From assembly GCA_016235805.1 (NCBI GenBank), contig JACRIY010000008.1, positions 1 to 64,000 of the forward strand: a stretch of DNA of 64,000 nucleotides. Reading direction: 5' to 3'. Each line of letters begins with the position of its first letter. Positions within the stretch are counted from its first letter, which is position 1. The stretch comes from Rhodocyclales bacterium (GTDB lineage Bacteria; Pseudomonadota; Gammaproteobacteria; Burkholderiales; Rhodocyclaceae). The translations under genes were made by a program, and so were the position numbers. Shown piece after piece: positions 595-54,233 of the stretch. Below the pieces are notes generated by a model. The model made no database searches, had not been told where the DNA came from, and saw only the letters and a program-made list of their open reading frames with translations.

Positions 595-623
595 GCCGTA
601 TCACCAGCGCCGACTTTCAAAAC
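595..623 (-). repeat. Dispersed bipartite repeat, copy 1 (intergenic)
   Basis: Read on the minus strand this is GAAAGTCGGCGCTGG, then tgat, then ACGGCG. It lies between the acnB stop and its terminator hairpin. It matches the family consensus AAnAGTCGGCGCTGG-N4-ACGGCG described in the findings. Confidence 0.7.
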
Positions 624-660
624 AAAACGCCCTCGTGGAGGAATCCACGGGGGCGTTTTT
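624..660 (+). terminator. Rho-independent terminator after acnB
   Basis: A GC-rich hairpin has the arms aaaacgccc-cgtgg and ccacg-gggcgtttt around a short loop and ends in a T run. The A run on the other side could also stop leftward transcription, but the gene on that side (696) has its stop nearby, so it may serve both strands. It lies directly after a copy of the dispersed repeat. Confidence 0.85.
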
Positions 661-695
661 ATTGGCAAGGCTTCGCTGCGAGCGTTGATCGAGTT

Positions 696-1331
696 TCAGG
701 GCTGGATCAGGCCGTTGCGGATCGCGTAACGGGTCAGTTCAACCACGTTGTGCAGGTCGAGCTTGCGCATCAGGTTGCGCCGATGCACATCGACCGTGCT
801 CGCCGCGATGTGCAGTTCGGCGGCGATGTCGGGGGCGCTCTTGCCTTCGGCGAGCAGTGTCGCCACCTGGATCTCGCGCCGCGACAGGGCCTCGGGCGAG
901 GTCGCCGCTCCGCGATCGCGCAGGCCGTCGGCCACCAGTGCGGCGACCTCCGAACAAAGGTAGCTGCGACCGTTGACCACGTTGCGGATGCCCTGCTTCA
1001 GTTCGGCACCGGCGGCCGACTTGGCGATGTAGCCGCTGGCGCCGGCATCGAGCATCTGCTGGATGATGCGGCGGTCGAGGTAAGTGGACAAGGCCAGCAC
1101 CCGGATCGCGGGATGCCGCGTCAGCAGGCGGCGTGTGGTTTCGATGCCGGAAAGCCCGGGCAGGGCAACGTCCATGACCACCACGTCCGGAGCCAGTTCC
1201 GCGGCGGCGCCCAGGGCCGTGTCGCCATCGCCGACTTCCGCCACGACTTGCATCCCGGAATCCTGGTCGAGCACGGTGCGCAAGGCTTCGCGCACCAGGG
1301 TGTGGTCATCGACAAGCATTATCCGGATCAT
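696..1331 (-). CDS. NarL/FixJ family response regulator
   Basis: A 211-residue transcription regulator with an N-terminal receiver domain (phospho-acceptor Asp54 in VVMDVALPG, acidic pair DD near residue 8, Lys in AKSAAG) and a C-terminal LuxR-type helix-turn-helix (SRREIQVATLLAEGKSAPDIA, roughly residues 148-205). I chose the ATG at 1331 because it carries a strong GGAGGAG ribosome site 8 bases upstream and starts exactly at the receiver fold; a longer frame upstream lies inside the kinase gene. It overlaps the end of the kinase at 1306 by 26 bases, so the two are co-transcribed and translationally coupled. Target genes are unknown; the neighbouring PAS and DUF2934 genes are candidates by position only. 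Confidence 0.93.
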   Translation of the reverse strand: MIRIMLVDDHTLVREALRTVLDQDSGMQVVAEVGDGDTALGAAAELAPDVVVMDVALPGLSGIETTRRLLTRHPAIRVLALSTYLDRRIIQQMLDAGASGYIAKSAAGAELKQGIRNVVNGRSYLCSEVAALVADGLRDRGAATSPEALSRREIQVATLLAEGKSAPDIAAELHIAASTVDVHRRNLMRKLDLHNVVELTRYAIRNGLIQP

Positions 1332-3222
1332 CGCCCATCTCCTCCTGCGAAACATCGCATGGCATGACAACGGCAATTGTCGCACCATTTCCGGGACTGC
1401 TGTCGACTTCCATGCTGCCGCCGATGTTGGCAATTCGCTCGCGCACCGAACGCAGCCCGAAATGGTGCGGATCGGCCAGTTCTCCCAGGTGCTTGGTCGG
1501 GTCGAAACCGCATCCGGCATCGCTTACCACCAGCGTCAGGCACTTGCGGTCGCAGAGGCAGGTCAGGCTCGCTTCGCCGATGCCGGCATGCTTGGCGACG
1601 TTGATCAGCAACTCGCGCGCCGACCGGTACAGCACCGCCTGCACCTCGTCGGACAACTGCCGGTCGCAACCGACGGGATCAACATGCACGGCCAGTCCGT
1701 AGACACGTCCGATCTCGTCGGCCAGCCACTCAAGCGCGGGCATCAGGCCCATGGTTTGCAGGAACGGCGGGCTCAGTTGCTGCGAGATGTTGCGCGCCGC
1801 CTGGTCGGCCTGGTCCAGCAGCGCAACGATACGGCCGATCTCGCCCGCCTGCGATCCCGCATCGATCGATGCCAGCTTGATCTTGATGACGGCCAGCAAC
1901 TGCGATAGATCGTCATGCAGATCCTGCGCCAGTTTTCGCCGCTCCCGCTCCTCGGTCATCGTCAGCTCGGCCGACAGGCGACGCAGTTGCACCGTGCGCT
2001 CCGCAACCTTGGCTTCGAGGCTTTGCGCCATTTCGCGCAACTGATCCTCGGCCTGGCGGCGACTGGTGACATCGACCATGATGCCGCGCAGCCATCGTGG
2101 AGCGCCGTTTTCCTCGACCACCGTGACCAGGTCGTGCAACCAGACGGTGCGGCCATCGCGGGCGATGAAGCGGTACTCGAAGTCGTGTGGCGCCAGGCGG
2201 CGGGTGCAGGACATGCAGTAATCAGGCGCCCAGTCGCGGTCGTCGGGATGCAAATGGGCCAGCCAGAAGCCAGGCTGCAACCAGTCGGCCACCGGAAAGC
2301 CGAGCAGCCGCTCGGCCTGCTGGCTGATGAAGGTGAAGTCGAAGGTCCTGGCGTCCGCTTCCCAGACGATGCCGTTGGTCGTATCGACCATGTCCCTGAA
2401 GCGCCGCTGGGAAGCCGCCAGTGCCTGTTCGGTGCGCTTACGCTCGGTGATGTCGCGATCGACCCCGCGGTAGCCGGCCACCTTGCCGGCCGCATCGCGG
2501 ATCGGCATGCCGTTGGTCAGGGTATCGTGCCAGCCGCCATGGATGTCGACAACGATGTTCTCCAGTTCGCGGAAGGCTTCGCCACGAGCGGCGATGGCGG
2601 CGAAGGCCTCCCCCACGCGCGCGGCCTCTTCCGCCGGCATCAGGTCGAAAGCCGTCTTGCCGACGATCTCTTCCGGCGCGTAGCCCAGCAGGTTTCGCAC
2701 ACTCTCCGATGCGAAGGTATAGCGGCCGTCGGTATCCACCTCCCAGATCCAGTCAGCGGAAACATCGGCCACGTCGCGGAACCGTCGCTCCGACTCGAGC
2801 AGCGCCCGCTCCACCTGCTTCTGGCTGGTGATGTCGATGGCCACCGCCAGGCATTCCTGTCCATCCGGTGAAAGCGCGGCCTTGATCAGGACACTTCGCG
2901 GCGCCTGACCCGCTATCGACAGATCGAGTTCGCAACTCTTCCGAGTGGCGCCCGAAAACACGTCTTGCAGGAATTTCTCGAATTGAACGGCGTCGCGGGT
3001 TGCGATGAAACCGGTGAAGGCGCAACCAACAAGCATGGGATGCTCGCTCGCCAGCAGGTCCGCTCCTGCCAGATTGCAGCGGCGAATGCCGCTGTCACGT
3101 CCGAGGCTGAAATATCCGACCGGAGCAAAAACGAACAGGTCGTCGCTGTCCGGCGGCGCGGCGCCGGTCGCGTCGCGCGCTTGCTCATGCGAAGGCGAGT
3201 GTGTCGAATCGATGGCCGTCAT
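1306..3222 (-). CDS. Multi-PAS sensor histidine kinase (NarX/DegS-type HisKA_3)
   Basis: A soluble sensor kinase of about 638 residues without a visible membrane segment. Three PAS domains follow each other: a divergent first one beginning with DDLFVFAPVGYF, a second at FRDVADVSADWIWEVD and a third at FRDMVDTTNGIVWEAD with a PAC segment. Next come a short coiled coil, a HisKA_3 dimerisation helix with the phospho-acceptor His at about 436 (LAQDLHDDLSQ), and an HATPase domain (N-box ELLINVAKHA, G-boxes DAGCGFD and GNGATI). The ATG at 3222 is preferred over an upstream TTG. It pairs with the overlapping response regulator. The ligand (redox, flavin, haem or small molecule) cannot be told from sequence. 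Confidence 0.92.
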   Translation of the reverse strand: MTAIDSTHSPSHEQARDATGAAPPDSDDLFVFAPVGYFSLGRDSGIRRCNLAGADLLASEHPMLVGCAFTGFIATRDAVQFEKFLQDVFSGATRKSCELDLSIAGQAPRSVLIKAALSPDGQECLAVAIDITSQKQVERALLESERRFRDVADVSADWIWEVDTDGRYTFASESVRNLLGYAPEEIVGKTAFDLMPAEEAARVGEAFAAIAARGEAFRELENIVVDIHGGWHDTLTNGMPIRDAAGKVAGYRGVDRDITERKRTEQALAASQRRFRDMVDTTNGIVWEADARTFDFTFISQQAERLLGFPVADWLQPGFWLAHLHPDDRDWAPDYCMSCTRRLAPHDFEYRFIARDGRTVWLHDLVTVVEENGAPRWLRGIMVDVTSRRQAEDQLREMAQSLEAKVAERTVQLRRLSAELTMTEERERRKLAQDLHDDLSQLLAVIKIKLASIDAGSQAGEIGRIVALLDQADQAARNISQQLSPPFLQTMGLMPALEWLADEIGRVYGLAVHVDPVGCDRQLSDEVQAVLYRSARELLINVAKHAGIGEASLTCLCDRKCLTLVVSDAGCGFDPTKHLGELADPHHFGLRSVRERIANIGGSMEVDSSPGNGATIAVVMPCDVSQEEMGDDPDNACR

Positions 3223-3388
3223 CCCTGATCCCGGCGGCGAACGGTTTGTTCCGTTCAGCAACACCGTCGGCACTGAACACCGCAAATATTACATTCCGCC
3301 CATCCGGTCAGGCAATCGATGGACTGGCGCGACACGATGCGCTCGCCGGCGATGCGACGCGGAAGCCGTCGCCAGCAGCTGACTTAGT

Positions 3389-3625
3389 TCAATGCAACTT
3401 GCCCAGGGATCGCTCGACGTCGGCCTCCGCCAGCAGCCAGTCGGACATTTCGCAACCTGGAGCGAAGCCACGCTGCTCGGCTCGGTAATAGGCGGCCTCG
3501 GCGATCATCTGCTCGCGGGAACACGCCTGGATCGAATCCTCCGCAACGGCCGCACCGCAGACGCGGGATGACTTCGCGGATCCGTTGATTCGCGGCTTTT
3601 TCACTGATTCGGTTCTGGGTTTCAT
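3389..3625 (-). CDS. DUF2934 family small protein
   Basis: A 78-residue protein of unknown function. The N-terminal 30 residues are basic and low in complexity (MKPRTESVKKPRING). The C-terminal half carries the DUF2934 signature: REQMIAEAAYYRAEQRGF followed by DWLLAEADVE. The ATG at 3625 is fixed by an excellent AAGGAGG ribosome site eight bases upstream. The gene lies between the kinase and two PAS genes, all on the minus strand. No membrane segment or signal peptide is seen, so a cytoplasmic location is likely. Confidence 0.85.
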   Translation of the reverse strand: MKPRTESVKKPRINGSAKSSRVCGAAVAEDSIQACSREQMIAEAAYYRAEQRGFAPGCEMSDWLLAEADVERSLGKLH

Positions 3626-3682
3626 TGTCTTATCCTCCTTTTGGCCTTGCTTGAACTGGCTGCTGCGAAACGCCGCCATGTC

Positions 3683-4105
3683 TCAAGACATCCTCGCTGG
3701 AACCACATGACGGACATCCAGCAGATACATGTCGCGTACGGTGTTGATCGACGCCATCCGCGCGAGGTTGATTTCGACAGGAAACTCCTGCCCGCTGGCG
3801 TCGCGCGCCTCGAATCGGCGCCAATCGCCACCGGAACAAAGATGTACCAGGTAGCGCGCGCTGTAACTGGGGGAACTTCCGGCAAGGAAGAGTCCCTTCA
3901 CGAACTCCGAAACCTGGCGTCCGAGCATGGCAACCTGGCTGGCCCCGAAAATCCGCTCCGCCGAAGGGCTGCAACTCAGAATCCGCCCGTACTGGTCGAG
4001 CACCAGCGTGCTCGAATCCTTGCGACTGCGGAAGCTCGGGGCGACTCCGGAAGCCCATTGCTCGAGGGCAACCCGCTGAAATTCCGTGTAACTCGATCCA
4101 TCCAT
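3683..4105 (-). CDS. Single PAS-domain protein (tandem copy A)
   Basis: A 140-residue protein that is little more than one PAS fold: an N-terminal helix, then TLVLDQYGRILSCSPSAERIFG, and a PAC-like end (EFPVEINLARMAS, YLLDVRH). It has no output domain, so it may act as a partner of another sensor such as the nearby three-PAS kinase; that is inference. The ATG at 4105 has a GGGGGGAG ribosome site. It is clearly paralogous to the next gene, sharing the block GLF-AGSSPSYSARYLVHLC and WRRF, and similarity persists at the DNA level, which suggests a fairly recent tandem duplication. Confidence 0.82.
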   Translation of the reverse strand: MDGSSYTEFQRVALEQWASGVAPSFRSRKDSSTLVLDQYGRILSCSPSAERIFGASQVAMLGRQVSEFVKGLFLAGSSPSYSARYLVHLCSGGDWRRFEARDASGQEFPVEINLARMASINTVRDMYLLDVRHVVPARMS

Positions 4106-4301
4106 GCGCTCCCCCCTGCATAACCCTATTGTCATTGTGGGAGCGTCGCAAAAATATCCATCCTTGGTAATCCGTGAATTCCGCGACAATTTGCGGAAAC
4201 TACGTAGTTGGCATTGCGCAGTCGGGAAGCGAAGCCCTTTGGTGGGCGGAATTGAAGGGTAAAGCGCATCCGACGGCGACGACCAGATCATCCCGAATCG
4301 C

Positions 4302-4688
4302 TCACTCGACACGGCGCAGGTTGAGCAGGAAAACCTCGCACGCGGAACGGTTTGACGCCATCGGTGCCAGGCTTATCTCGACCAGCAATTCTTCACCCCG
4401 GCCATCCACCGCGTGAAACCGGCGCCATCCGCCGTCGGCGCAAAGGTGGACCAGGTAGCGCGCACTGTAACTGGGCGAACTGCCGGCGCGAAACAGGCCC
4501 GAAATGAACTCGGATATCCAGTTGCCCATCAGCCTGGCCGGACGCGTACCAAGCAGGCGAGCCGCCGGTTCGCCGCAGCTCAGGATGCGGCCAAGGCGGT
4601 CCAGTATCAGAGTGGCATGTCCGCGGGAGACATCCGCGTCGTCGGCGACGGCGTCCAATTCCATTGGCGTGCTAGTCGGCAATGCCAT
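4302..4688 (-). CDS. Single PAS-domain protein (tandem copy B)
   Basis: A 128-residue PAS-only protein, paralogous to the downstream gene at 3683-4105. Shared segments include RILSC, SEF-SGLF, AGSSPSYSARYLVHLC, GWRRF and VEI-LA-MAS. The start at 4688 has GGAG about 10 bases upstream; an internal ATG at residue 9 is an alternative. No output domain, signal peptide or membrane segment is visible. The two copies are separated by about 196 bases, so each may have its own promoter. The function is unknown beyond a probable sensory role. Confidence 0.82.
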   Translation of the reverse strand: MALPTSTPMELDAVADDADVSRGHATLILDRLGRILSCGEPAARLLGTRPARLMGNWISEFISGLFRAGSSPSYSARYLVHLCADGGWRRFHAVDGRGEELLVEISLAPMASNRSACEVFLLNLRRVE

Positions 4689-4874
4689 GCCTGATGCTCC
4701 AGTGTGATTTGGCGTCCCTCACTGAAAGCCGGCGGACGAACGCATATGCGACGATAGTGGGCCGGCGGAAAAGCTGGAATACCGCGGCAGCGGTATTTTT
4801 TCTACCGTGAAGCCGGTATGCGGCTCGTCCCAGCCCAGGCTGGCGCGTGGTTTGCAACTCCGGAGGATTCGTTT

Positions 4875-4899
4875 GCCGTGGTACCAGCGCCGACTTTTG
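4875..4899 (-). repeat. Dispersed bipartite repeat, copy 2 (intergenic)
   Basis: Read on the minus strand this is CAAAAGTCGGCGCTGG, then tacc, then ACGGC. It lies a few tens of bases from the terminator of the small exported-protein gene. Confidence 0.7.
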
Positions 4900-4931
4900 T
4901 CGCGCGAACGGCATCGACGCACACCGGACAC

Positions 4932-4963
4932 AAAAACGCCCCGGCATTGCTGCCGGGGCGTTT
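4932..4963 (-). terminator. Rho-independent terminator for the small exported-protein operon
   Basis: On the minus strand a GCCCCGGCA / TGCCGGGGC hairpin with a 4-base loop is followed by GTTTTT. It lies 28 bases after the stop of the gene at 4992-5309. The other strand ends in only three T. Confidence 0.8.
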
Positions 4964-4991
4964 CAGGTGTCGAGCCCGGGCCACCGATCCG

Positions 4992-5309
4992 CTATTGGCC
5001 GCGCCCCTCGCCGCGCCGCATGGCTCGCATGCGCTCCGGATAGATATCACGTCCGGCCTGGTGCACATCGCGGCGCAACTGTCGCCGTTCCTCAGGCGAA
5101 AGCCGATTTCCGCGGCGGTCGCCGGCGTCCGCCGAATCCGCAGACGAGGATTCCGAACGTTGCTCGCTCTGGATCATGCGCCGCGGGCCGTCGCCGTCGG
5201 CATGGCGCCCCGGACCCATGCGCTGTGGCCCCTGGGCCGCCGCAGCGGCAACGGTCAACCACAGGACACCGGCCACCGCCGTCCAGCCCAACCCACGTTT
5301 TGCGCTCAC
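4992..5309 (-). CDS. Small exported Arg/Gly-rich protein, unknown function
   Basis: A 105-residue protein with a GTG start, preceded by GAGGGG. The first 25 residues form a clear signal peptide (WTAVAGVLWLTVAAAAAQG). The mature part is hydrophilic, rich in Arg, Gly and Asp, and ends in a helix typical of a conserved hypothetical group (LSPEERRQLRRDVHQAGRDIYP). It has no cysteines. It follows a 44-residue exported peptide gene by 19 bases and ends before a terminator, so the pair forms a short operon divergent from ompR. Its proximity to ompR-envZ suggests envelope stress or osmotic control, which is inference. Confidence 0.72.
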   Translation of the reverse strand: MSAKRGLGWTAVAGVLWLTVAAAAAQGPQRMGPGRHADGDGPRRMIQSEQRSESSSADSADAGDRRGNRLSPEERRQLRRDVHQAGRDIYPERMRAMRRGEGRGQ

Positions 5310-5328
5310 GTCCGCCCCTCTCGATTCT

Positions 5329-5463
5329 TCAACGGAAGATATTGTAGACCTGCTCGCCGGCGACGCGGCTTGCCGCCATCAAGTGATCGACACCGGCCTG
5401 CGGTTCCGAGCCCCACAACACCAGGCCCGCCGCAAGCGCCATGCTGAAGATCAATGCTTTCAT
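5329..5463 (-). CDS. Tiny exported peptide, 44 residues
   Basis: A very short frame begins at the ATG at 5463 with a GGAGG ribosome site at ideal spacing. The N-terminal 22 residues look like a signal peptide (MKALIFSMALAAGLVLWGSE); the mature part is only about 20 residues and ends in GEQVYNIFR. The good ribosome site, the signal-like start and co-directional close spacing to the next exported protein (19 bases) support it as a real gene. No family is recognised. It diverges from ompR across about 180 bases that contain a candidate OmpR site. Confidence 0.6.
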   Translation of the reverse strand: MKALIFSMALAAGLVLWGSEPQAGVDHLMAASRVAGEQVYNIFR

Positions 5464-5556
5464 GCCTGCCTCCGTATCCCGTACCACACAGCCGCTCTTC
5501 CGGCACGCTTGCATTCTCGGCAGCCGCTGTAAGGCAATTGTTGCCGCAGCCCCGGC

Positions 5557-5576
5557 TTTGTAATCGTTTGTAAAGC
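5557..5576 (+). promoter_or_regulatory. Candidate OmpR-type direct-repeat site
   Basis: Two adjacent 10-base half sites, TTTGTAATCG and TTTGTAAAGC, form the head-to-tail arrangement that OmpR-family regulators bind. The site lies in the divergent region between ompR (starts 5645) and the tiny exported peptide gene (starts 5463). It could serve autoregulation, control of the small operon, or both. Assignment is by pattern only. Confidence 0.45.
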
Positions 5577-5644
5577 CGGCTGGCAGGATCACGGCGATCC
5601 GGCTAGGATTCGCAGCCAATTCCCCCTGGAATAGACTGCATGCC

Positions 5645-6373
5645 ATGACCGAAGCCAAAGCCAAGATTCTGGTCGTCGACGACGACCTGCGATTGCGCCA
5701 GTTGCTGGAGCGCTACCTTTCCGAGCAGGGCTTCGCGGTCAAGGCGGTGCCCGATGCGCAAGGCATGGACCGCGCCCTGGAACGCGAGCTGTACGACCTG
5801 ATCGTGCTCGACCTCATGCTGCCCGGCGAGGACGGCCTTGCCATCTGCCGCCGCCTGCGCGGCCATGCCAACCCGGTGAGCATCATCATGCTGACGGCGA
5901 AGGGTGACGAAGTGGACCGCATCGTCGGCCTTGAAGTCGGCGCCGACGACTACCTGCCCAAGCCCTTCAGCCCGCGCGAACTGGTGGCGCGCATCCATGC
6001 CGTGCTGCGCCGGCGCACGGCCCCGCCGCCTCCCGGCGCGCCGGCCATCGTCGAGGAAAGCGTGACCTTCGGCAAGGTGACGATCAACCTGGCGACGCGC
6101 GAACTGGAGCGCGACTCCGTGGCCACGCTGCTGACCTCTGGCGAGTTCGGCCTGCTGCGCGTACTGCTGGAGCACCCACGCCAGCCGATGAGCCGCGACA
6201 AGCTGATGGAACTGGCGCGCGGCCGCGAATACGAAGTCTTCGACCGCGCCATCGACGTCCAGATCTCGCGCCTGCGCAAGCTGGTCGAGGAAGATCCCGG
6301 CAAGCCGCGCTACATCCAGACCGTCTGGGGTTTCGGTTACGTTTTCGTGCCGGATGGCAAGAAGCACGAATGA
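5645..6373 (+). CDS. ompR: OmpR response regulator
   Basis: A 242-residue DNA-binding regulator. The receiver domain has VVDDD near residue 11, phospho-acceptor Asp56 in LDLMLPGEDG and Lys in LPKPFSPREL; the winged-helix effector domain covers about residues 140-235 (DVQISRLRKLVEEDP, YIQTVWGFGYVFVP). The match to OmpR is full length. It overlaps envZ by ATGA at 6370-6373, so the pair is coupled. It controls porins and osmotic responses in relatives. A probable OmpR box lies 70 bases upstream. Confidence 0.95.
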   Translation: MTEAKAKILVVDDDLRLRQLLERYLSEQGFAVKAVPDAQGMDRALERELYDLIVLDLMLPGEDGLAICRRLRGHANPVSIIMLTAKGDEVDRIVGLEVGADDYLPKPFSPRELVARIHAVLRRRTAPPPPGAPAIVEESVTFGKVTINLATRELERDSVATLLTSGEFGLLRVLLEHPRQPMSRDKLMELARGREYEVFDRAIDVQISRLRKLVEEDPGKPRYIQTVWGFGYVFVPDGKKHE

Positions 6374-9262: not shown

Positions 9263-9265
9263 CAG

Positions 9266-9896: not shown

Positions 9897-10442
9897 TCAA
9901 TCGGTGTCTGCTTCGGCGAGGGAAAAGCGCGCCAGGGTACGGTAGCTGGCGGCGGACGGGTGCAGATGGCTTTCCACCAGCGCAAACTCGCTTACCCGCC
10001 AGCCAATCGGCGTTTCCAGTGGCGGCAGCGACGGGGATTGCACGCGGCGTGCGAGGGTGACATGCGGCACCTGCCCGGCGCGCGGATCGATGACGAAGCC
10101 GGCACCACGCAAGGCATCGTGAAGTTGTTCCGAAAGTCGGCGCTGGCGAGACGGCGTCTGCCGGCAACCCGCCCATACGATGCCGCCGCGCGCAAAGAAG
10201 CCGAGGTGGTCGAGGTTCAGGTCGAAGGCCTCGCCACGCACCGAGGCCGCCAGTTCCTCGAGTGCCTCCACTTGCCCGGTCGTGACGGCACCGATGAAGG
10301 CCAGCGTCAGGTGCAGCGTCGCCGGTTGCATGGCACGCCCGCCATCGCGCGCCATTTCCTGCGCCAGCGCCGACAGACGGGACACCGCTGCCGCGTCCGG
10401 CCAAAGCGCGAAAAAAACCCGATGCGGGCGCGGCTCGCCCAA
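9897..10442 (-). CDS. thpR: RNA 2',3'-cyclic phosphodiesterase (2'-5' RNA ligase family)
   Basis: A 181-residue member of the 2H phosphoesterase superfamily. Both catalytic HxTx motifs are visible: HLTLAF at about residue 51 and HVTLAR at about 133. The N-terminal RVFFALWPD is typical of ThpR. These enzymes open 2',3'-cyclic phosphates on RNA and can ligate 2'-5' ends. The gene follows ispF by six bases on the same strand, so it is probably in the same operon. A copy of the dispersed repeat (10133-10156) lies in the coding region, antisense to it. Confidence 0.92.
   Translation of the reverse strand: MGEPRPHRVFFALWPDAAAVSRLSALAQEMARDGGRAMQPATLHLTLAFIGAVTTGQVEALEELAASVRGEAFDLNLDHLGFFARGGIVWAGCRQTPSRQRRLSEQLHDALRGAGFVIDPRAGQVPHVTLARRVQSPSLPPLETPIGWRVSEFALVESHLHPSAASYRTLARFSLAEADTD
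10133..10156 (+). repeat. Dispersed bipartite repeat, copy 3 (inside thpR)
   Basis: GAAAGTCGGCGCTGG-style block, then cgag, then ACGGCG. It reads antisense to thpR and encodes the stretch TPSRQRRLS without breaking the frame. Confidence 0.55.
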
Positions 10443-10448
10443 CTGCGG

Positions 10449-12356: not shown

Positions 12357-12360
12357 GAGC

Positions 12361-12385
12361 CCCGTGTCGCCACCGCCGACTTTTG
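12361..12385 (-). repeat. Dispersed bipartite repeat, copy 4 (intergenic)
   Basis: Read on the minus strand this is CAAAAGTCGGCGGTGG, then cgac, then ACGGG. It lies just upstream of the tetrahaem cytochrome start, between it and the porin gene. The first block has one change from the consensus. Confidence 0.65.
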
Positions 12386-18802: not shown

Positions 18803-18826
18803 AAAGTCGGCGCTGGCGGGACGGTG
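18803..18826 (+). repeat. Dispersed bipartite repeat, copy 5 (intergenic)
   Basis: GAAAGTCGGCGCTGG, then cggg, then ACGGTG. It fills the 33-base gap between the convergent regulator and thioredoxin-like genes and marks the right border of the segment that separates ispD from ispF. Confidence 0.7.
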
Positions 18827-21160: not shown

Positions 21161-22534
21161 ATGACTACCACTACCACACTGCGCCCGGCGGCCGTCGCCG
21201 GCATGTTCTACCCTGGCGACCCGGATACCCTGCGCGACGAACTCGCGAGTTGCCTTGCCGGCGCCGTACCGTCGGCGCCGACTCTTGGCGCGGGGCTGCT
21301 CAAGGCCCTCATCGTCCCGCACGCGGGCTACGTCTATTCCGGCGGCACCGCCGGCCAGGCCTACGCCCTGCTCGCCCCGCTGGCCGGGCGCATCCGCCGC
21401 GTGGTGTTGCTCGGCCCCTGCCACCGCGTTTCTGTCGCCGGCCTGGCGGCGCCGACGGTGCAAGCCTTCGCCACGCCACTGGGCAGCATCGTCATCGACC
21501 GCGCAGCGATCGACGGCCTGGCCGACCTGCCGCAGGTCGTGGCCAGCGACGCCGCCCACGCCCAGGAACATTCGCTGGAAGTGCAACTGCCCTTCCTGCA
21601 GACCGTGCTCGGCTCCTTCCAGCTGGTCCCGCTGGCCGTGGGCCAGACAGGGGCTGCCGAAGTCGCCCAGGTCATCGACCGGCTCTGGGGCGGGCCGGAA
21701 ACCCTGCTCGTGATCAGCTCCGACCTGTCGCATTTCCACGCCTATGCCGAGGCGCGCAAGATCGACCACGCCACGGCGGAGCGCATCCTCGCGCTGGAAC
21801 AACTGACCAGCTTCGAGCAGGCCTGCGGCGCGTTGCCGATCAACGGTCTGCTGGCCGTGGCCCGCCGGCGCGGCCTGCGCATCGAACGCATCGCCCAGTG
21901 CAACTCCGGCGACACGGCCGGCGACAAGGGCCGCGTGGTCGGCTACGCCTCCTTCGCCCTCTACGAAGCGCCGCCGGCCGCGGTAGACGATCCCGGCCCG
22001 GCGCTGCTGGCGCGCGCGCGCAACGCCATCGCCGCGCAACTCGGACAGCCGACGCGGGCGGAACCGGCGCATCCTGGACTGGACCAGCCCGGCGCCACCT
22101 TCATCACGCTGACCCAGGGCGGGGCTTTGCGCGGCTGCATCGGCTCGCTCGAAGCGCATCGTCCGCTGGAGCAAGACGTGCGGGCCAATGCCGTCGCCGC
22201 GGCCTTCCGCGACCCGCGCTTCCCGCCGCTCAAAGCCGAGGAACTGACGCGCACCCGCGTCGAAGTCTCCCTGCTTACCGCGCCGCAACCCATGAGCTTC
22301 AGCGACGAAGCCGACGCCCTGCGCCAGTTGCGGCCGAACGTCGATGGCGTGATCTTCAGCGCCGGTCAAAAGAGGAGCACCTTCCTGCCCCAGGTCTGGG
22401 AGCAACTGCCCGACCCGCGCCAGTTCATGGCCCACCTGAAACAGAAAGCCGGCCTGCCGGCCGACTACTGGTCGCCCGAGGTCCGCCTGCAACGCTACGA
22501 GGTACGAAAATGGAAAGAAGCGCCGATCCCATAA
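21161..22534 (+). CDS. amrB: AmmeMemoRadiSam system protein: MEMO1-AMMECR1 fusion
   Basis: A 457-residue two-domain protein. Residues about 5-270 are the MEMO1 fold, related to extradiol dioxygenases (VAGMFYPGDPDTLRDEL, VPHAGYVYSGGTA, EHSLEVQLPFLQ, SSDLSHF). Residues about 285-450 are the AMMECR1 domain (GATFITLTQGGALRGCIGSLEA, DPRFPPL, EVSLLT). In many genomes these are separate genes amrB and amrA. With the downstream radical SAM gene they form the AmmeMemoRadiSam set, whose chemistry I cannot assign. It overlaps that gene by 25 bases. A diverged copy of the dispersed repeat is inside the N-terminal coding part. Confidence 0.93.
   Translation: MTTTTTLRPAAVAGMFYPGDPDTLRDELASCLAGAVPSAPTLGAGLLKALIVPHAGYVYSGGTAGQAYALLAPLAGRIRRVVLLGPCHRVSVAGLAAPTVQAFATPLGSIVIDRAAIDGLADLPQVVASDAAHAQEHSLEVQLPFLQTVLGSFQLVPLAVGQTGAAEVAQVIDRLWGGPETLLVISSDLSHFHAYAEARKIDHATAERILALEQLTSFEQACGALPINGLLAVARRRGLRIERIAQCNSGDTAGDKGRVVGYASFALYEAPPAAVDDPGPALLARARNAIAAQLGQPTRAEPAHPGLDQPGATFITLTQGGALRGCIGSLEAHRPLEQDVRANAVAAAFRDPRFPPLKAEELTRTRVEVSLLTAPQPMSFSDEADALRQLRPNVDGVIFSAGQKRSTFLPQVWEQLPDPRQFMAHLKQKAGLPADYWSPEVRLQRYEVRKWKEAPIP
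21263..21287 (-). repeat. Dispersed bipartite repeat, diverged copy 6 (inside amrB)
   Basis: Read on the minus strand this is AAGAGTCGGCGCCGA, then cggt, then ACGGCG. Three positions of the first block differ from the consensus; the four-base spacer and second block are kept. It is antisense to the gene. Confidence 0.45.
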
Positions 22535-25977: not shown

Positions 25978-26002
25978 AAAAGTCGGCGCTGGCGACACGG
26001 CG
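25978..26002 (+). repeat. Dispersed bipartite repeat, copy 7 (intergenic)
   Basis: AAAAGTCGGCGCTGG, then cgac, then ACGGCG: a perfect match to the consensus. It lies between two terminators of convergent genes. Confidence 0.75.
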
Positions 26003-26891: not shown

Positions 26892-30295
<3,404 letters not shown>

Positions 30296-30966: not shown

Positions 30967-32058
30967 ATGCAACAAACTGAAAACCTGAATATCGAAGCCT
31001 TCGAGCCGATGCCCACGCCCGAAGAGGTCCACGCCCGCGTGCCGCTCTCGGAAGCCGCCGCGGAGTCGGTGCTGGCGGGACGGCGCACGCTGGAACGCAT
31101 CCTCGACGGCAGCGACCCGCGCATCTTCGTCGTGGTCGGCCCCTGTTCCATCCACGATCCGGTGGCCGGCATCGACTACGCACGGCGCCTGAAGAAGCTC
31201 GCCGACGAAGTCGCCGGCACCATGGTCCTGGTGATGCGGGTGTATTTCGAAAAACCGCGCACGGCGACCGGCTGGAAGGGCTACATCAACGATCCGCGCA
31301 TGGACGATTCCTTCCACATCGAGGAAGGCCTGCAGAAGGGCCGTGAATTCCTGCTCGCCGTGAACGAACTCGGCCTGCCGGCCGGCACCGAGGCACTCGA
31401 CCCGATCGCGCCGCAGTATCTTGGCGACCTGATCGCCTGGACCGCAATCGGCGCGCGTACCTCCGAATCGCAGACGCACCGCGAAATGTCGTCGGGATTG
31501 TCGACGCCGGTCGGCTTCAAGAACGGCACCGACGGCTCGCTCGACGCGGCCGTGAATGCCATTATTTCGGCCGGCAGCCCGCACAGCTTCCTCGGCATCA
31601 ACATGCAGGGCCGCTCCTGCGTGGTGCGCACCGCCGGCAACCGCTACGGCCACCTGGTGCTGCGCGGCGGCGGCGGCCGGCCCAACTACGACACGGTCAG
31701 CGTCGCCCTGGCCGAGGCCGCACTGGCCAAGGCGAAGCTGCCGCACAACATCGTGGTCGACTGTTCGCACGCCAACAGCTACAAGAAGCCGGAACTGCAG
31801 CCGCTGGTGATGCACGACTGCATCAACCAGATCCGCGACCAGCGCAGGACCGGCCACCGCTCCATCGTCGGCCTGATGATCGAAAGCTTCATCGAAGCCG
31901 GCAACCAGCCGATTCCCGACAATCCCGCGTTGCATGGGCAACTGAAGTACGGCTGTTCGGTGACCGACGCCTGCGTCGACTGGACAACCACCGAAACCAT
32001 GATTCGCGAAGCCGACGCGGCCCTGCGCAGCGTCATTCCCCAACCCGCCAATTCCTGA
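30967..32058 (+). CDS. aroG: 3-deoxy-7-phosphoheptulonate synthase (class I)
   Basis: A 363-residue DAHP synthase, the first step of the shikimate pathway, condensing phosphoenolpyruvate and erythrose 4-phosphate. Signatures are VVVGPCSIHDP (metal Cys), RVYFEKPRTATGWKG, AIGARTSESQTHREMSSGLSTPVGFKNGT and VDCSHANSYK. The isoform (Phe-, Tyr- or Trp-sensitive) is not certain. It begins six bases after the toxin gene and is followed by the DUF1015 gene after nine bases. A repeat-like string occurs near residue 34 but fits the natural helix there. Confidence 0.95.
   Translation: MQQTENLNIEAFEPMPTPEEVHARVPLSEAAAESVLAGRRTLERILDGSDPRIFVVVGPCSIHDPVAGIDYARRLKKLADEVAGTMVLVMRVYFEKPRTATGWKGYINDPRMDDSFHIEEGLQKGREFLLAVNELGLPAGTEALDPIAPQYLGDLIAWTAIGARTSESQTHREMSSGLSTPVGFKNGTDGSLDAAVNAIISAGSPHSFLGINMQGRSCVVRTAGNRYGHLVLRGGGGRPNYDTVSVALAEAALAKAKLPHNIVVDCSHANSYKKPELQPLVMHDCINQIRDQRRTGHRSIVGLMIESFIEAGNQPIPDNPALHGQLKYGCSVTDACVDWTTTETMIREADAALRSVIPQPANS
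31063..31085 (+). repeat. Possible dispersed-repeat match inside aroG
   Basis: GAGTCGGTGCTGG, then cggg, then ACGGCG. It encodes ESVLAGRR in a helix where other DAHP synthases have a similar helix, so a chance match produced by GC-rich codons is possible. Confidence 0.3.
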
Positions 32059-33945: not shown

Positions 33946-34487
33946 CTACAGGCCCTTCACCGCATACACGGCGGGCAGGTTGCGCCAGGCGCCCTTGACG
34001 TCCATGCCGTAGCCGAAGACATAGCGATTGGGCAGGCGAACGCCGACGAAGTCGGCGACCACCGGCTTGGCGCGGCCAAGATCCTTGTCCGCGAATACGG
34101 CGCACAGCACTTCGCTGGCGCCCTGGGCACGCAGGTGGGCAACGATTTCCGCCATCGTGACGCCCTCGTCGAGGATGTCGTCGACCACCAGCACGACGCG
34201 CCCGGCGACCGCCGAACGCGGCTTGACGATCCATTCCAGTTCGCCGCCGGTGGTGACGTTGCCGTAGCGCGTGACATGCAGGTAATCGAAGTCGAGCGGG
34301 AAATCCAGTTGCGGCAGGAGCTGGCCGGTGAACACCACGGCCCCGCCCATCACCGACAGCACCAGCGGGTTCGCGCCGCCCAGCCGCGCGCCGATCTCGG
34401 CCGCCACGCGCCGTACCGCCAGCGCCGACTCTTCGGCCGAACAGATCAGGTCGGCGTCGTCGAGGACCCTGCGCGCTTCCTGCGGGC

Positions 34488-39322: not shown

Positions 39323-42300
39323 TCAAGCCACTTTCTGTTCGTCGGCGAGGCGCAGCGCCTCTTCGATATCGACTTCCACCACGCGCGACACGCCCTGCTC
39401 CTGCATGGTCACGCCGATCAGTTGCTGCGCCATTTCCATGGCGATCTTGTTGTGCGAAATGAAAACGAACTGCGTATGCACCGACATGCGCTTGACCATT
39501 TCGCAGAAGCGCACGGTGTTGGAGTCGTCGAGCGGGGCGTCGACCTCGTCCAGCATGCAGAACGGCGCCGGATTCAGATTGAAGATGGCGAACACCAGGG
39601 CGATCGCGGTCAGCGCCTTTTCGCCGCCGGACAGCAGGTGGATGGTGGTGTTCTTCTTGCCCGGCGGCTGCGCCATGATCTGGATGCCGGAGTCGAGGAT
39701 CTCGTCGCCGGTCAGGATCAGCCGCGCTTCGCCGCCGCCGAAGAGCTGCGGGAACAGGGTGCCGAAATGCATGTTGACCGTGTTGTAGGTCTCCTGCAGC
39801 TGTTCGCGGGTTTCGCGGTCGATGCGGCGGATGGCGTCTTCCAGCGTGCCGATGGCCTCGGCCAGGTCGGTGGATTGCGCGTCGAGGAAGTTCTTGCGCT
39901 CGGAGGCCGTGGCCAGTTCCTCCAGCGCGGCCAGGTTGACCGGGCCCAGCGTCTCGATTTCCGCGGTGAGCCGCGCGATGTCACCCTGCAGGACGCTGTC
40001 CTTGAGCCGGTCGGCGCCGCCCGCCGAAAGTTCGTCGAGGAAAGGGGCTTCGTCCTCTTCGCTGACGACGCGCACTTCGGCGAGCCGTTCGCGGAACTGC
40101 TCCTCGTTGAGCTGCGCCGCCTGGGCCTTGAGCCGCAAGTCGTTGATCCGGTCGCGCAGCGGTGTCAGGCCCTGTTCCAGCCGCAGGCGCTGTTCGTCGA
40201 GGTTGCGCAGTTCGCCGGCCGCTGCTTCGAGCACGTTGCGCCGTTCCGCCAGCGCCGACTCTTTGATGCCGCGCGCATCCAGCGCCGCATGAAGCTGCTC
40301 CTGCAACACGGTATCGCTGATGCCGGCGACTTCGGTGCGCGCCGCCGCGGTTTCGGCATCGATGCGCTGCAACTGGCTACTGGCCGTCGCTGCCGCACGG
40401 CCGTTGTCATCGAGCTTGGAAAGGCATTCGCGCTCGGAGAATCCGGCTTCCTGCAACTCGCGCCCGAGCTGGGTCTCGACGGCGCGCGCGTCACGCAACG
40501 CCATGTCCTTCTGCCGGTGCAGGTCGATGGCACGCTCGACGCGCTCGCGCACGGTGCCGAGGCGCTCACGTTGCAATTCACCTTCGTCGTCGGCGCGCTC
40601 GATACGCGCCTTCTCGATTTCCTCCTGGCGCTGCAACTCGGCCAGATCCCGGTCGATCTGCGCGCTGCGTTCCTCGAAGCGCGCCTGGGCCTGGGCCAGC
40701 TTCAACGCCTCGACCTGAGCCGCATGCAGGGCCTGCTGGGCTTCCTGCAAGGCTCGGCGGGCACCGGTCAGTTGGAGTTGCAGCTCGGCCAACTCCTGTT
40801 CCGCAAGCTGCTGGCGCGCGCGCGCGACATCCTCCGCCTCGGCACGCGATTCGAGTTGCGCGGCGAGTTCGTCGATCTCGCGCTGGCGTTCGATGACGCC
40901 GTGGGTCTTGGCATCGGGAACGTAAAGCGTCAGACCTGCCGGAGTCAGCAGATGGCCGGCGCGCGAAACGCGTCTGCCGGAGGCCAGCGGCAAGCCGGAA
41001 GCGAGATCCTCGCTGACCGAAACATCGGCCAGCCATTCGTCGAGCACGCCGTTCCAGCGCTCATCCTCGCAGCGCACCTTGGCGCGCAGGCTTTCCGCTG
41101 GCGCAATTGCCGCCGCCGAGGTGGAAGGCACGGCCAGGGTCAAAATTGCGGGAGGCGGCGATGCCAGCGCTGCACGCAAGGTATCGGCATCCGCGGCAAG
41201 CGCCGAGAAGCGTTCGCGCAGCACCGCCTCGACCGCGGTTTCCCAACCGGCCTCGACCTGGATCGACTGCCACAAGGGTTTGGCTTCGGCCAGGCCGCGG
41301 GCCTTGAGCCAGTCGCCGATCTCGCCGCCCTTGGCCACCTTGGCCTGCAACTGGGCAAGCGCATCGTGGCGGGCACGGGATTCGGTCAGGCTGCGATGCG
41401 CCGCCTGCAGGGCTTCGCGTGCCGCACGCAGCGCGGCTTCGGCGCCGGGCACGGCGGATTGCAGTGCGGCCAGTCGCTCCTGCGCCACGTCGAGCGCTTC
41501 GGCGCCGCGCGCCTCGGCCTCGCGTGACGCGCCCAGCTGCGCCGGGTCGGGTGCGCCGAGCGCCTGCTTGTCCTGTTCCAGCCTGCCTCGCCGCTGGGCG
41601 AGATTTTCAAGCGCGCGCTGGGCATGGCCGCGGTCGGCCTCGGCCAGACGCAAAGCCTGCTCGGCATCGCTCAGGGCGCGCCGCGACTCGGTGACTTCGC
41701 CACCGGCATTCTGTACCGCATCCTCGCATTCGGGCAGGCGCGCCGCGGCCTCCTCGTGGCGCGCGGCGGCGGCGGCGACACGGTTGCGAGAGTTTTCCAG
41801 CAGCGCGGTCCAGCGCGCCGAATCCTCCGCCAGCGTCGCCTGCTGGCCGCTCCAGTGGCTTTGTTCGGCGCCGAGCTGGGCCAGGCGCGTTTCGAGGCGG
41901 CTGCGCGAATCGCGCAGGTGGCCCAGTTCGCTTTCCAGCCGGCCGACTTCGTTGGTGGCGGCATACATTTCCGCCTGCGCGGCGTGCAGCGCATCGGACG
42001 CCGAATAGTGGCTCTCGCGCGAATGCTCGACGCGCGCCTCGATTTCGCGCAACTGCGCGGTCTCGCCCTCGACCCGGGTGACGGCTTCCTCGACCAGGCG
42101 CGTCAGGCGCTGGCCGTCGCTGCGCGCGTCATTGCGCTTCTTCAGCCAGAGCAGGGTCTGCTTGCGCGACATCTCCTCGTGCAGGCCGCGATACTGCTGT
42201 GCCACGGTGGCCTGTGCCTGCAGGTGGACCACCTGCTTCTCCAGTTCGTTGCGGATGTCATCGACGCGGGCAATGTTCTCGCGGGCGTCTTCCAGGCGAT

Positions 42301-43437: not shown

Positions 43438-46400
43438 TCAGGTTGCGGTATCCACCGTCGCACCGGCAGGTTCGTCGGCGGTGCGGGTGAAATAGAGCCG
43501 GGCGAATTCGGCCGCCGGAACGGCACGGCCAAACAGGTAACCCTGCCCGAATCGACAACCGCGGTTGATCAGGAAGTTGCGCTGGTCCTCGGTTTCGATA
43601 CCCTCGGCAATGACATCCAGGCCGAGGCCCTTGCTCATCGCGATGATGGCATCGACCAGCGCCATGTTTTCTTCGTCATCGGGAATGCCCCGTACGAATG
43701 TCTGGTCAATTTTCAAGGTATCCACCGGGAAGCGCTTCAGGTAGCTGAGCGAGGAATAGCCGGTGCCAAAATCGTCGATCGCGACCTGGCATCCCATGGC
43801 GGCCACTTCGTTCAACTGGCGGCAGGCATCGCCCTGGTCGTCGATGAACAGGCTTTCGGTGATCTCGACCACGAGCTGGCTGGCGTCGGCACCGGCATCG
43901 GCCAGCGCATTGCGCAGCAGTGCTACACAATCGCCGCGCTGGAACTGCTGCGCCGACAGGTTGACGCCGATGCGGAAATCCGGCGGCGCCTCGACCCTCC
44001 ACGCTGCGGCCTGGCGCGCGGCCTCCTGCACCACCCACGCCCCGAGGGGAAGCATCAGCCCGCATTCCTCCGCCGCCGAAACGAACTGCACCGGCCCCAC
44101 CAGGCCGCGCTGCGGATGCCGCCAGCGAACCAGGGCCTCGGCCTTGATCGCCAGGCCGCTGAATATCCTGACCACGGGCTGGTAGTAAAGCTCGAATTCT
44201 CCGTCGCGCAGCGCCCGGCGCAGTTCGTCTTCGAGGCGCAGGCGCGCCACGGCATGCTCGTGCATTTCGGCAGTAAAGAAGCGATAGGTGTTCTTGCCAT
44301 CGGCTTTGGCGCGATACATCGCCGTATCGGCATGGGCCAGCAATATCTCCGGGGTCTCGCCATCGTCGGGAAACAGGGTCAGGCCGACGCTGCAGGAGAC
44401 GAACAGATCCTTGCCTTCGATGACATAGCCTTCGCGAACGTGGTCGAGGATCTTCCCGGCCAGCGTCTGCAGGTCGTGCTGTCCCTGGATTTCGGGCAAC
44501 ACGACCATGAACTCGTCGCCGCCGACGCGCGCCACGGTATCCGATTCGCGAATGCAGTGCGTCAGGCGCCGCGCGGTTTCGACCAGCAACAGGTCGCCGA
44601 TGCGGTGGCCGAGCGTATCGTTGATGTGCTTGAAACCATCAAGGTCGAGCATGGCCACGCCGACCCGTTGTCCGTGGCGCTGGGCGCGCATGATCGCCTG
44701 GCCGATGCGGTCACCCAGCAGGCGCCGGTTGGGCAGGCCGGTCAGTGCGTCGTGCGCGGCCTGGTGCTCGATTTTCTCGGCCTGGCGCTTCTGCGTCGTC
44801 ACGTCGCTGAACATCGCCAGGTAGCGCTGGGCCCGTCCTTCGGTGTCGTGGATGGTCGACACCGTCAGGCGTTGCGCGAACGGCTCGCCTGACTTGCGCC
44901 GGTTCCAGACTTCTCCCGCCCAGAATCCATCGCGCTCCAGCGCATGCCACATGGCCTCGTAGTGATCGGCAGCCTGCAAGCCGGCATTGAGCAGTTTCGG
45001 ATCCTTGCCCAGCACTTCGTCGGCGGTGTAGCCGGTGATCGTCTCGAATGCCGGATTCACGGAGATGATCCGGTTTCGCGCATCGGTGACCATTATCCCT
45101 TCGGTGGCCTTTTCGAATACCAGCCCGGCCGTCGCGAGCCGCTGCTCCAGCAACTTGCGCTCGCTGATGTCGAGCAGGATGCCGCGCTCAATCGCCTTGT
45201 CGCCGTCGTCGCCGGACGTCGCCGCGGAAAGGTGATGCACCCAGACATAGTAGCCATCGACGTGGCGCAGGCGATAGTCCAGGGAACACCCCGTGCCGGT
45301 GGCGCTTGCCCGGGACCACGCCTCACCTACCCGAATGGCATCGTCCGGATGTACCAGCAGATCGAGGAAACCGGGCTGCAGCCACTCGTCCGGGTCGCGA
45401 CCGAGCAGTCCGCGCGCTTGGGGCGAAACATAGGTGAAGCGTCCGAATTGGAACGAAAACTCCCAGGCCACGAGCCGGGCACCTTCGACCATGAAGCGAT
45501 AGCGCTCCTCGCTCTGGCGCAGGATTTCGGTGGCCTTTTCCTCGGCGCGACGATGTTCGGCGACACTGCCCATCAGCCCCAGCAGCGAAGCCGAGAGTTC
45601 ACTGACTTCGTCACCGCGTTGGGGTTCCGCGGCATTCAGACTGGCCAGCACCACCGGCGAGGCAGTGCCCGTGACGGCAAATTCGCGCTGAGCCCTGCCC
45701 AGGGCCAGGATGCGGCGTACCAGCGTGGTGGCCCAGATGCCGAAGACGATCCAGGCCGCTACGACAAATGCCAGAGCACCCATCGCCAGGGGCTTGAAAA
45801 GTTCCCTCAACGCGAACGGTTCATCCGGATGCACTGTCAGTCTGACCTTGGGGTTGTCCGGCTGAACCGGGTTCCACGACGTTACGGTCGATTTCGTGCC
45901 GGCGCCCGGAAGGGCCTCCGCAGCTGTCATTCCAGCATCGCCTGACGAGCTTGCAATCGGGCGGCCCTGCCACAGGGCGACCAGATCCGTTTCGGGGTAG
46001 GTCAGGGTGCCCATCAAGGCATGGTCGATAGGACGAAACGTCAGCAGCACGCCGTTCTGCCCATCCCCCAGCCAGACCTGCTGCCGATACACCCGGTAGA
46101 GGCGATTGTCTCTTGCGTCGTAAGCCCAACTGCCTTCTCCCCTGTCGAAGGACACCGAGGGAATGTATTCGCCGAGATACGCGAACCAGGCGAGGCGATT
46201 GCCTTCGCTGTCGAGGACGACAACTACCGGAAACTCCGGCACACCACCCTGTGCAGTGATGAACGTGCCGAGCTTGCCCTGGCGCCCGGAGGCGTCTTCC
46301 AGCACGCGCGCGTATTCGAGGCGCGCCTTGAAGTTGTAGGCAGCGCGCTCCCATTCGGTCTCCCGCAGCGCCAGCGCCGCATTGAAATGCGTCGTCGCCT

Positions 46401-46548: not shown

Positions 46549-46600
46549 GAGTTCAGAAATAGTGAGGATGCTTTCGCGCAGCGAACCGTTTCGGGGCTTC

Positions 46601-47632: not shown

Positions 47633-47709
47633 CGCTCAGCCCCGTGCGCTGCCTGACAAGAACCTTCAATCTTAAAGCACATACGCGCCGAACGGCGGTC
47701 GGAAACCCG

Positions 47710-50286: not shown

Positions 50287-50297
50287 GGGCGGGACAT

Positions 50298-51776: not shown

Positions 51777-51924
51777 TGTTTCGCCCCCAGTCCCCGTCAG
51801 TGCCTCAACCGCGACACGTTATGCGATTTTACGGCCCGCGCAAGGACAGTGGCAAGGAACCACTACCACCTGGACACAGGCAATGGCGAGATAGTGCGCC
51901 CTTCCCGGCCCCGGGAGTGGGAGT

Positions 51925-52557: not shown

Positions 52558-52613
52558 GGTACCGGACCGGTCTGGGGGAAGGCGATGGTAGCACCCGCGA
52601 CGTGACGGGATGC

Positions 52614-54056: not shown

Positions 54057-54124
54057 CGCTGGCTTTCGTTTTGTCGGGAGAGGGCGGATTTTGCCGCATT
54101 GACCGCCGGCGCGGTAGTACCGCC

Positions 54125-54149
54125 AAGAGTCGGCGCTGGCAACACGGCG
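54125..54149 (+). repeat. Dispersed bipartite repeat, copy 9 (intergenic, forward)
   Basis: AAGAGTCGGCGCTGG, then caac, then ACGGCG. It faces the inverted copy at 54208-54233. Confidence 0.75.
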
Positions 54150-54207
54150 ATTTCGGCGCGCCCGGCAGGCGCCAAAGATTAAGGTGGTGCCGCGCGGCGG
54201 CGCCACT

Positions 54208-54233
54208 TGCCGTGTCGCCAGCGCCGACTTTTG
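54208..54233 (-). repeat. Dispersed bipartite repeat, copy 10 (intergenic, inverted)
   Basis: Read on the minus strand this is CAAAAGTCGGCGCTGG, then cgac, then ACGGCA. With copy 9 it makes an inverted pair about 58 bases apart, a layout like a BIME that could fold in RNA. Confidence 0.75.

What the first reader, a model, noticed from the sequence alone, without database searches (positions are those of the whole stretch)
595..54233. Dispersed two-block repeat: AAnAGTCGGCGCTGG, N4, ACGGCG
About 13 sites share two constant blocks separated by exactly four variable bases (tgat, tacc, cgag, cgac, cggg, cgct, caac, cggt and so on). Seven are intergenic (595, 4875, 12361, 18803, 25978, 54125, 54208) and six lie in genes (thpR, amrB, mfd, aroG, hpt, smc). 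Both orientations occur and two intergenic copies form an inverted pair. The fixed spacer with variable content is unlike simple REP decay and could mark a protein-binding site, an uptake signal or a miniature element. Caution: the aroG, hpt and smc copies encode similar helical peptides (ES-LA-RR) and may be chance.
Basis: seen in the sequence. Interest (0 to 1): 0.8.

Follow-up and report, generated by a model that had tools for sequence, protein, structure and literature searches.

The report
New uptake-signal-like DNA motif in Rhodocyclaceae
A two-block DNA word of about 26 letters is scattered hundreds of times through a group of environmental bacteria, with related lineages using slightly different spellings, much like the self-recognition tags that Neisseria and Haemophilus use when they take up DNA.

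Summary
The repeat is real and was under-counted: 16 window hits at up to 3 mismatches against a shuffle mean of 1.67, and 334 exact copies in the draft genome with 0 for the reversed control. The full motif is about 26 bp, CRARAGTCGGCGCYGGCGNNACGGCG. Copies occur in both orientations, in genes and, 2.2- to 2.5-fold enriched, between genes. Exact copies are abundant in 6 of 68 sampled genera of the family, all in one clade of a one-gene tree.

Two facts decide the kind. Where a relative lacks a copy, 50 of 98 alignments are ungapped and none is shorter by more than 12 bases, so copies arise by substitution, not insertion. And lineages respell the whole set: AGTTGG in three sister genomes (259-308 copies), AGTCGA in G111, AGTTGGTG...ACGC in G080 (five copies seen); others have lost it.

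Neisseria DUS and Haemophilus USS behave this way. Best explanation: an unreported family of DNA uptake sequences read by a type IV pilus minor pilin. Uptake is untested and the receptor unidentified; ComP-family pilins occur, but also in a motif-poor genome.

The parts
596..615 (-). motif, exact; between convergent genes, 15 bp past the stop of an aconitase-family gene (3-581, +)
4876..4895 (-). motif, exact; between called genes
10135..10154 (+). motif, exact; antisense in a thpR-like (LigT / 2'-5' RNA ligase) gene
12362..12381 (-). motif, 1 mismatch; between called genes
18805..18824 (+). motif, exact; 4 bases after the stop codon of a response regulator gene, between convergent genes
21264..21283 (-). 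motif, 2 mismatches; antisense in the Memo-AMMECR1 (amrB) gene
25981..26000 (+). motif, exact; between convergent genes (rhodanese / PEP-CTERM protein)
27908..27927 (+). motif, exact; sense in mfd, in a length-variable linker (ARVGAGATATLP). The same place carries the motif in most relatives aligned, and follows the local spelling in G027 and G111
31064..31083 (+). 1-mismatch copy in a DAHP synthase gene (aroG), reads ESVLAGRR; probably held by the protein
34411..34430 (-). exact copy in a phosphoribosyltransferase gene (hpt), reads ESALAVRR; probably held by the protein
40241..40260 (-). exact copy in smc, reads ESALAERR; not compared with relatives
46363..46382 (-). 3-mismatch hit in a PAS-GGDEF-EAL gene; probably chance
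54128..54147 (+). motif, exact; first arm of an inverted pair between two minus-strand genes
54210..54229 (-). motif, exact; second arm of the inverted pair. The region folds far better than shuffles (z -8.75 and -6.35 on the two strands)

Best explanation
The motif is a DNA uptake sequence: a self-recognition mark for natural transformation in one clade of Rhodocyclaceae. Proposed working: a type IV pilus minor pilin at the cell surface binds double-stranded DNA that carries the mark; the pilus pulls it in, ComEC passes one strand to the cytoplasm, and it recombines. Because marked DNA is taken up more often, mutations that bring a stretch closer to the consensus spread, so marks build up by substitution in tolerant places (linkers, reading frames such as VGAGDTA, the space after stop codons). 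When the receptor's preference changes, the whole set is respelled; when uptake is lost, the set decays. Shown here: over-representation, origin mainly without insertion, dialects, lineage losses, position pattern, presence of ComEC and minor-pilin genes. Inferred: uptake, the receptor, its specificity and the cause of the losses.
For: 334 exact copies, control 0; all 31 genomes of the genus have it, 7-468 copies, and 23 of 24 genomes of other families have none. Dialects: AGTTGG 259/285/308 copies in G001/G015/G027 (which keep 40/41/35 AGTC) and 0-7 in the other 28 genus members, these three forming one clade with SH-aLRT 98; AGTCGA in G111, 48 of the 50 one-mismatch hits listed, 432 hits within 3 mismatches against 96 for the control; AGTTGGTG...ACGC in G080, five copies in about 22 kb of readable sequence, 460 hits against 66. 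The mfd linker copy is AGTT in G027 and AGTCGA in G111. Decay: G021, G025 and G016 have 222, 287 and 87 hits within 2 mismatches against 15-17 for controls. Where an ortholog lacks the motif, 50 of 98 pairs are ungapped and none is shorter by more than 12 bases; of 10 site clusters with an absence, 6 are wholly or mainly ungapped. Copies sit after genes: 8 of 23 and 7 of 17 intergenic copies lie between convergent genes, which make up 12% and 11% of intergenic bases (p 0.004 and 0.0014). ComEC in 30 of 31, GspH-type minor pilins in 30 of 31. Viral contigs that hold a copy have 37 further copies per Mb against 135 in named host contigs chosen the same way.
Against: No uptake data. ComEC and GspH pilins are widespread (ComEC also in 10 of 14 control genomes), so their presence does not discriminate. 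All 22 pilins scanned match ComP_DUS, but one is from motif-poor G016, and the family is also marked on pilins of Acinetobacter baylyi (PMC5542475 passages), which as I recall uses no uptake sequence. The two AGTT-dialect pilins seen are of another subgroup (36-37% identical to G000's), so no receptor-dialect coupling could be tested. The motif is longer than the 12-bp DUS and 9-bp USS core and sparser (about 150-185 per Mb at one mismatch). No bias to gene ends (16 of 101 within the outer tenths), unlike Pasteurellaceae. Only two inverted pairs in 862 kb. No replacement motif in 412 kb of G016 although it keeps ComEC. Some ungapped absences concern copies in the ES-LA frame, which could be coding resemblance.
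Confidence: 0.78

Rival explanations
1. The motif is the site of an intracellular chromosome-binding protein (segregation, condensation, recombination or restriction-avoidance), spread along the chromosome and co-evolving with that protein.
For: Even spread: no empty stretch among the 20 stretches of 18-20 kb plus the window from G000 and 20 stretches from G002. A co-evolving protein could also respell its sites and lose them. A 12+4+6 layout suits a two-contact binding protein.
Against: Orientation against GC skew is 42:43 in one genome and 23:38 in the other, not the strong bias of Chi- or KOPS-like signals (recalled). Half of the coding copies seen change the protein relative to orthologs, a cost usually tolerated only for a mark that spreads by itself (inference).
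Confidence: 0.13
2. A miniature mobile element (REP, MITE or palindromic element) that inserts as a unit.
For: Dispersed, intergenic enrichment, one inverted pair in the window; some copies carry a REP-like hairpin inside the spacer.
Against: No relative is shorter by more than 12 bases at an empty site, and 50 of 98 absences are ungapped. Genome-wide respelling of a single base is not expected of an element. Intergenic sites mostly did not align between species, so insertion there is less well tested.
Confidence: 0.03
3. A transcription-end or mRNA 3' element.
For: Enrichment between convergent genes and just after stop codons; the window's inverted pair folds strongly.
Against: 62 of 85 and 44 of 61 copies lie in coding sequence, and only two inverted pairs were found in 862 kb.
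Confidence: 0.04
4. Composition or codon use makes the motif common by chance.
For: G+C-rich coding DNA can give ESALAxRR and VGAGxTA frames; the aroG and hpt copies look protein-held.
Against: Reversed control 0; the 171 genomes with none and the other poor genomes of the same family show what such composition gives (0-12 copies); simulations give 0 copies at 0-1 mismatch.
Confidence: 0.01

Closest known systems
DNA uptake sequence (DUS) of Neisseriaceae, with dialects (Frye et al. 2013, PMC3630211: abstract and the section 'DUS dialects' seen)
   Same: Very over-represented motif in both orientations; species-group dialects that differ by one or a few bases; all DUS dialects share a CTG core, and all four spellings here keep GCTG.
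   Different: About 26 bp in two blocks instead of 10-12 bp; about 300-470 exact copies per rich genome instead of roughly 1000-6000; other bacterial family; sequence not the same; no uptake data; receptor unknown.
Uptake signal sequence (USS) of Pasteurellaceae (Redfield et al. 2006, PMC1626085: abstract seen)
   Same: Arises by mutation rather than copying; two spellings split along subclades; a core plus extra conserved flanks; ancestral to a clade.
   Different: USS core is 9 bp with AT-rich flanks; here the extra block is G+C-rich. Pasteurellaceae copies are biased to gene ends (van Passel 2008, PMC2346458: abstract); here they are not.
REP/BIME, MITE and palindromic elements (recalled)
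   Same: Dispersed short repeats, often between genes.
   Different: No sign of unit insertion; whole-set respelling; mostly in coding sequence.
Chi, KOPS, parS, Noc/SlmA-type sites (recalled)
   Same: Short chromosomal motifs read by a protein.
   Different: No clear strand bias and no empty regions in the samples; longer motif.

Membership tests
DNA uptake sequence (DUS/USS) | Massive over-representation of one non-palindromic motif | tested here: met
   334 exact copies, reversed control 0; AGTCGGCGCTG is the top 11-mer in the samples of G000 and G002
DNA uptake sequence (DUS/USS) | Both orientations, in genes and between genes, without strong strand bias | tested here: met
   62 coding/22 intergenic/1 edge and 44/17; 42:43 and 23:38 against GC skew
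DNA uptake sequence (DUS/USS) | Copies arise by mutation, not insertion | tested here: met
   mostly coding sites; paralogs among the distant pairs cannot be excluded
DNA uptake sequence (DUS/USS) | Dialects among related species | tested here: met
   the G080 spelling rests on five copies
DNA uptake sequence (DUS/USS) | Inverted pairs forming terminator-like hairpins | tested here: inconclusive
   two inverted pairs in 862 kb; window pair folds at z -8.75/-6.35; termination not tested
DNA uptake sequence (DUS/USS) | Competence machinery in the carriers | tested here: inconclusive
   ComEC 30 of 31, GspH pilins 30 of 31, but both are widespread; ComEA, PilQ and DprA not searched
DNA uptake sequence (DUS/USS) | A cognate receptor pilin that co-varies with the motif | tested here: inconclusive
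   PF16732 ComP_DUS in 22 of 22 pilins scanned (22 of the 37 candidate ORFs), including motif-poor G016
DNA uptake sequence (DUS/USS) | The motif raises DNA binding, uptake or transformation | not testable with these tools
   needs bench work
DNA uptake sequence (DUS/USS) | Depletion in foreign DNA | tested here: inconclusive
   37 against 135 extra copies per Mb, viral against host loci; hosts of the viral contigs unknown and some may include host flanks
REP / MITE / palindromic element | Presence and absence differ by a discrete insert | tested here: not met
   no empty site shorter by more than 12 bases
Chi/KOPS-type polar signal | Strong bias to one replication strand | tested here: not met
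   23:38 in G002 is a weak lean only
Promoter-bound regulator site | Placement upstream of genes | tested here: not met
   divergent regions hold 2 of 23 and 2 of 17 copies though they are 23% and 18% of intergenic bases

The most novel reading that the evidence does not exclude
A separately evolved self-DNA code in Rhodocyclaceae with at least four spellings, read in two contacts about one and a half helical turns apart by a pilin or pilin pair, so that both blocks and the fixed distance are needed. That would be a bipartite uptake signal unlike the single-block DUS and USS, with respelling events caught in the act.
Probability: 0.45. Interest if true: 0.85.

Novelty: new variant of a known kind. 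Interest (0 to 1): 0.8.

Why it matters
Uptake sequences are described in the papers seen here for two families, Neisseriaceae and Pasteurellaceae. A further clade of free-living freshwater and sediment bacteria would show that self-marking for DNA uptake is not tied to host-associated lineages. It would also give independent dialect switches and losses for asking how a genome-wide code changes spelling, and a marker for telling native from imported DNA in metagenome-assembled genomes.

Tried and rejected
Mobile element: rejected. Composition artefact: rejected. Promoter site: rejected. Replication-strand signal: not supported. Replacement dialect in G016: none found in 412 kb. ComP through PF00114: only G016 of 31 genus members has a match, against a simple PilE/ComP story. 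Receptor by co-variation: not possible, pilin loci of different genomes were not the same ortholog. Bias to gene ends: none. Rfam: no match in the window. Literature: 'DNA uptake sequence' with Rhodocyclaceae 0 papers; uptake signal sequence with betaproteobacteria and two further terms 0; the motif letters of two spellings on both strands in 4 unrelated papers by title (listing only); Sulfuritalea with natural transformation 0; a six-term search 41 papers, 15 seen as a listing, none on this motif by title. The library lacks most subscription journals.

A draft of this report wrote the consensus with the Y one place too early; it has been corrected.
Full report
WHAT IS THERE. The window has 16 hits to AGTCGGCGCTGG-N4-ACGG at up to 3 mismatches, 10 of them exact; 100 shuffles average 1.67 and never exceed 5. 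The genome holding the window (3.83 Mb, 130 contigs, 80% complete) has 334 exact copies, 178 on one strand and 156 on the other, and none of the pattern read backwards. In 462 kb of this genome (20 stretches plus the window) there are 56, 29, 11 and 9 copies at 0, 1, 2 and 3 mismatches, against 0, 0, 1 and 27 in one order-3 Markov simulation; in 400 kb of G002, a single-contig genome of the same genus, 37, 24, 13 and 16 against 0, 0, 2 and 17. So copies are sharp, with few half-decayed forms. Base frequencies give about 26 bp, CRARAGTCGGCGCYGGCGNNACGGCG; the first two spacer bases are nearly fixed.

WHERE IT SITS. With a simple hexamer gene caller of my own, 62 of 85 copies (at most 1 mismatch) in G000 are coding, 22 intergenic and 1 at an edge, against 8.8 intergenic expected; in G002 44 coding and 17 intergenic, 7.7 expected (p 3.7e-5 and 1.4e-3). 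Among intergenic copies 8 of 23 and 7 of 17 lie between convergent genes, which make up only 12% and 11% of intergenic bases, often a few bases past a stop codon; divergent (promoter) regions hold 2 of 23 and 2 of 17. Against local GC skew the orientation is 42:43 in G000 and 23:38 in G002. In-gene copies in the gene's own direction mostly use the frame VGAGxTA, 25 of 37 and 24 of 28. Same-sense copies exceed antisense ones 61 to 40 (p 0.046), and there is no bias to gene ends, 16 of 101 in the outer tenths. Each of the 41 pieces sampled holds at least one copy within 2 mismatches. Two inverted pairs were found in 862 kb: the window's 54128/54210, and one in G002 in which both arms carry the same variant base. 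The window pair folds at z -8.75 and -6.35 on its two strands.

WHO HAS IT. All 31 genomes of the genus have exact copies, 7 (G016) to 468 (G005); six genomes of other genera in the family have 0-1, and 23 of 24 genomes from other families have none, the remaining one 2. In 249 genomes of 68 genera drawn from the family, only six genera have a genome with 40 or more copies of AGTYGG...: g1, g32, g43, g62, g70 and g88; all others have 0-12. On a tree of one protein (Mfd, 47 rows: 14 of the genus and 33 others) all rich genomes fall into one clade of 31 rows (SH-aLRT 100), which also holds seven poor genomes: G095, G089, G088, G111, G080, G306 (long branch) and G016. The fewest rich/poor changes are 6. 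Only 33 of the 65 genomes matched could be placed, mostly the closest ones; G098 and G031, poor and with partial Mfd matches of 80-81%, were not placed and might fall inside. G016's place differs between the two trees.

DIALECTS. G001, G015 and G027 carry 259, 285 and 308 copies with AGTTGG and only 40, 41 and 35 with AGTCGG; the other 28 genus members have 0-7 AGTTGG. The three form one clade (98). Two poor genomes inside the larger clade prove to be respelled. G111 has 432 hits within 3 mismatches against 96 for the control, and 48 of the 50 listed one-mismatch hits read AGTCGACGCTGG. G080 has 460 against 66, and in about 22 kb of readable sequence five copies read CAGTTGGTGCTG(G/A)-N4-ACGCCG or close to it. 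G095, G088, G306 and, outside the clade, G035 and G083 are at or below control level; G089 has 197 against 120. G021, G025 and G016 show scattered variants: 222, 287 and 87 hits within 2 mismatches against 15, 17 and 17; a k-mer search in 412 kb of G016 shows no replacement motif. One place, a length-variable linker of mfd, carries the motif in most relatives aligned and in several genera; there it reads AGTTGG in G027 and AGTCGACG in G111.

HOW COPIES ARISE. I aligned 379 copies (at most 1 mismatch, with flanks) to the other loci in hand: 699 pairs spanned the motif. In the 98 pairs where the relative lacks the motif (more than 5 mismatches), the net length change is zero in 50; the rest go both ways, mostly by multiples of three, and no relative is shorter by more than 12 bases. 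Without the loci chosen for holding the motif, there are 24 site clusters; 10 include an absence, of which 6 are wholly or mainly ungapped, 3 have other gaps and one is the mfd linker. Examples: QAEESALVAR against QAEEAELIGR, and VTLEKVGAGDTA against VTLAKADGSDTG (translated by eye). Limits: intergenic sites mostly failed to align, some pairs may be paralogs, and some of the ungapped cases are in the ES-LA frame, where coding resemblance is possible.

WHAT IT MOST LIKELY IS. Over-representation, dialects, respelling at shared sites, origin by substitution, loss in single lineages and the position pattern together match DNA uptake sequences. Frye et al. describe eight DUS dialects, each conserved within species and following phylogeny (PMC3630211, abstract and one section); Redfield et al. 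[quoted passage not shown] In support, ComEC is found in 30 of 31 genus genomes and GspH-type pilins in 30 of 31; beside the latter lie minor pilins of the ComP_DUS family. These do not discriminate: ComEC rings in 10 of 14 control genomes, and the ComP_DUS match is there in motif-poor G016 too; the same Pfam family is named for pilins of Acinetobacter baylyi (PMC5542475, passages). The viral comparison (37 against 135 further copies per Mb) points the same way but is confounded by unknown hosts. A chromosome-binding protein remains the main rival.

WHAT IS NEW. No held paper found reports this motif; the library is partial. The layout, 12 bp + 4 + 6 with short flanks, is longer than DUS or USS, and may mean two contacts.

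Noticed in passing
L283 (G027 mfd), L270 (G022 amrB), L187 and L190 (G002): Rare long form: the motif's spacer holds about 34 bp with a CCGCTTCGCGG hairpin, as if a REP-like unit had entered the spacer or the short form had lost it.
   Followed up: partly
mfd linker, window about 27890-27950 and orthologs: The linker is a hotspot: besides the motif, G007, G017 and G027 carry REP-like or other inserts there, and its length varies widely between species.
   Followed up: partly
G148:C1 1461267-1502264; G122 C66, C104, C557; G121 C50: In motif-poor genera the few copies are clustered (five within 41 kb of a 3.7-Mb genome in G148), as if in DNA imported from motif-rich relatives; contamination is possible in fragmented genomes.
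   Followed up: no
G016:C94:4759-5121: The one genus member with almost no motif is also the only one of 31 with a PF00114 pilin match.
   Followed up: no
L340, L043, L087, L114 (G074/G070): G074 mixes exact copies with AGTCGGTT, AGTCGGTG and AGTCGGCGA forms; perhaps a respelling under way or decay.
   Followed up: no
L073 (Sulfuritalea sp. bin.273): Nine exact copies reported in 6.1 kb, far denser than elsewhere.
   Followed up: no
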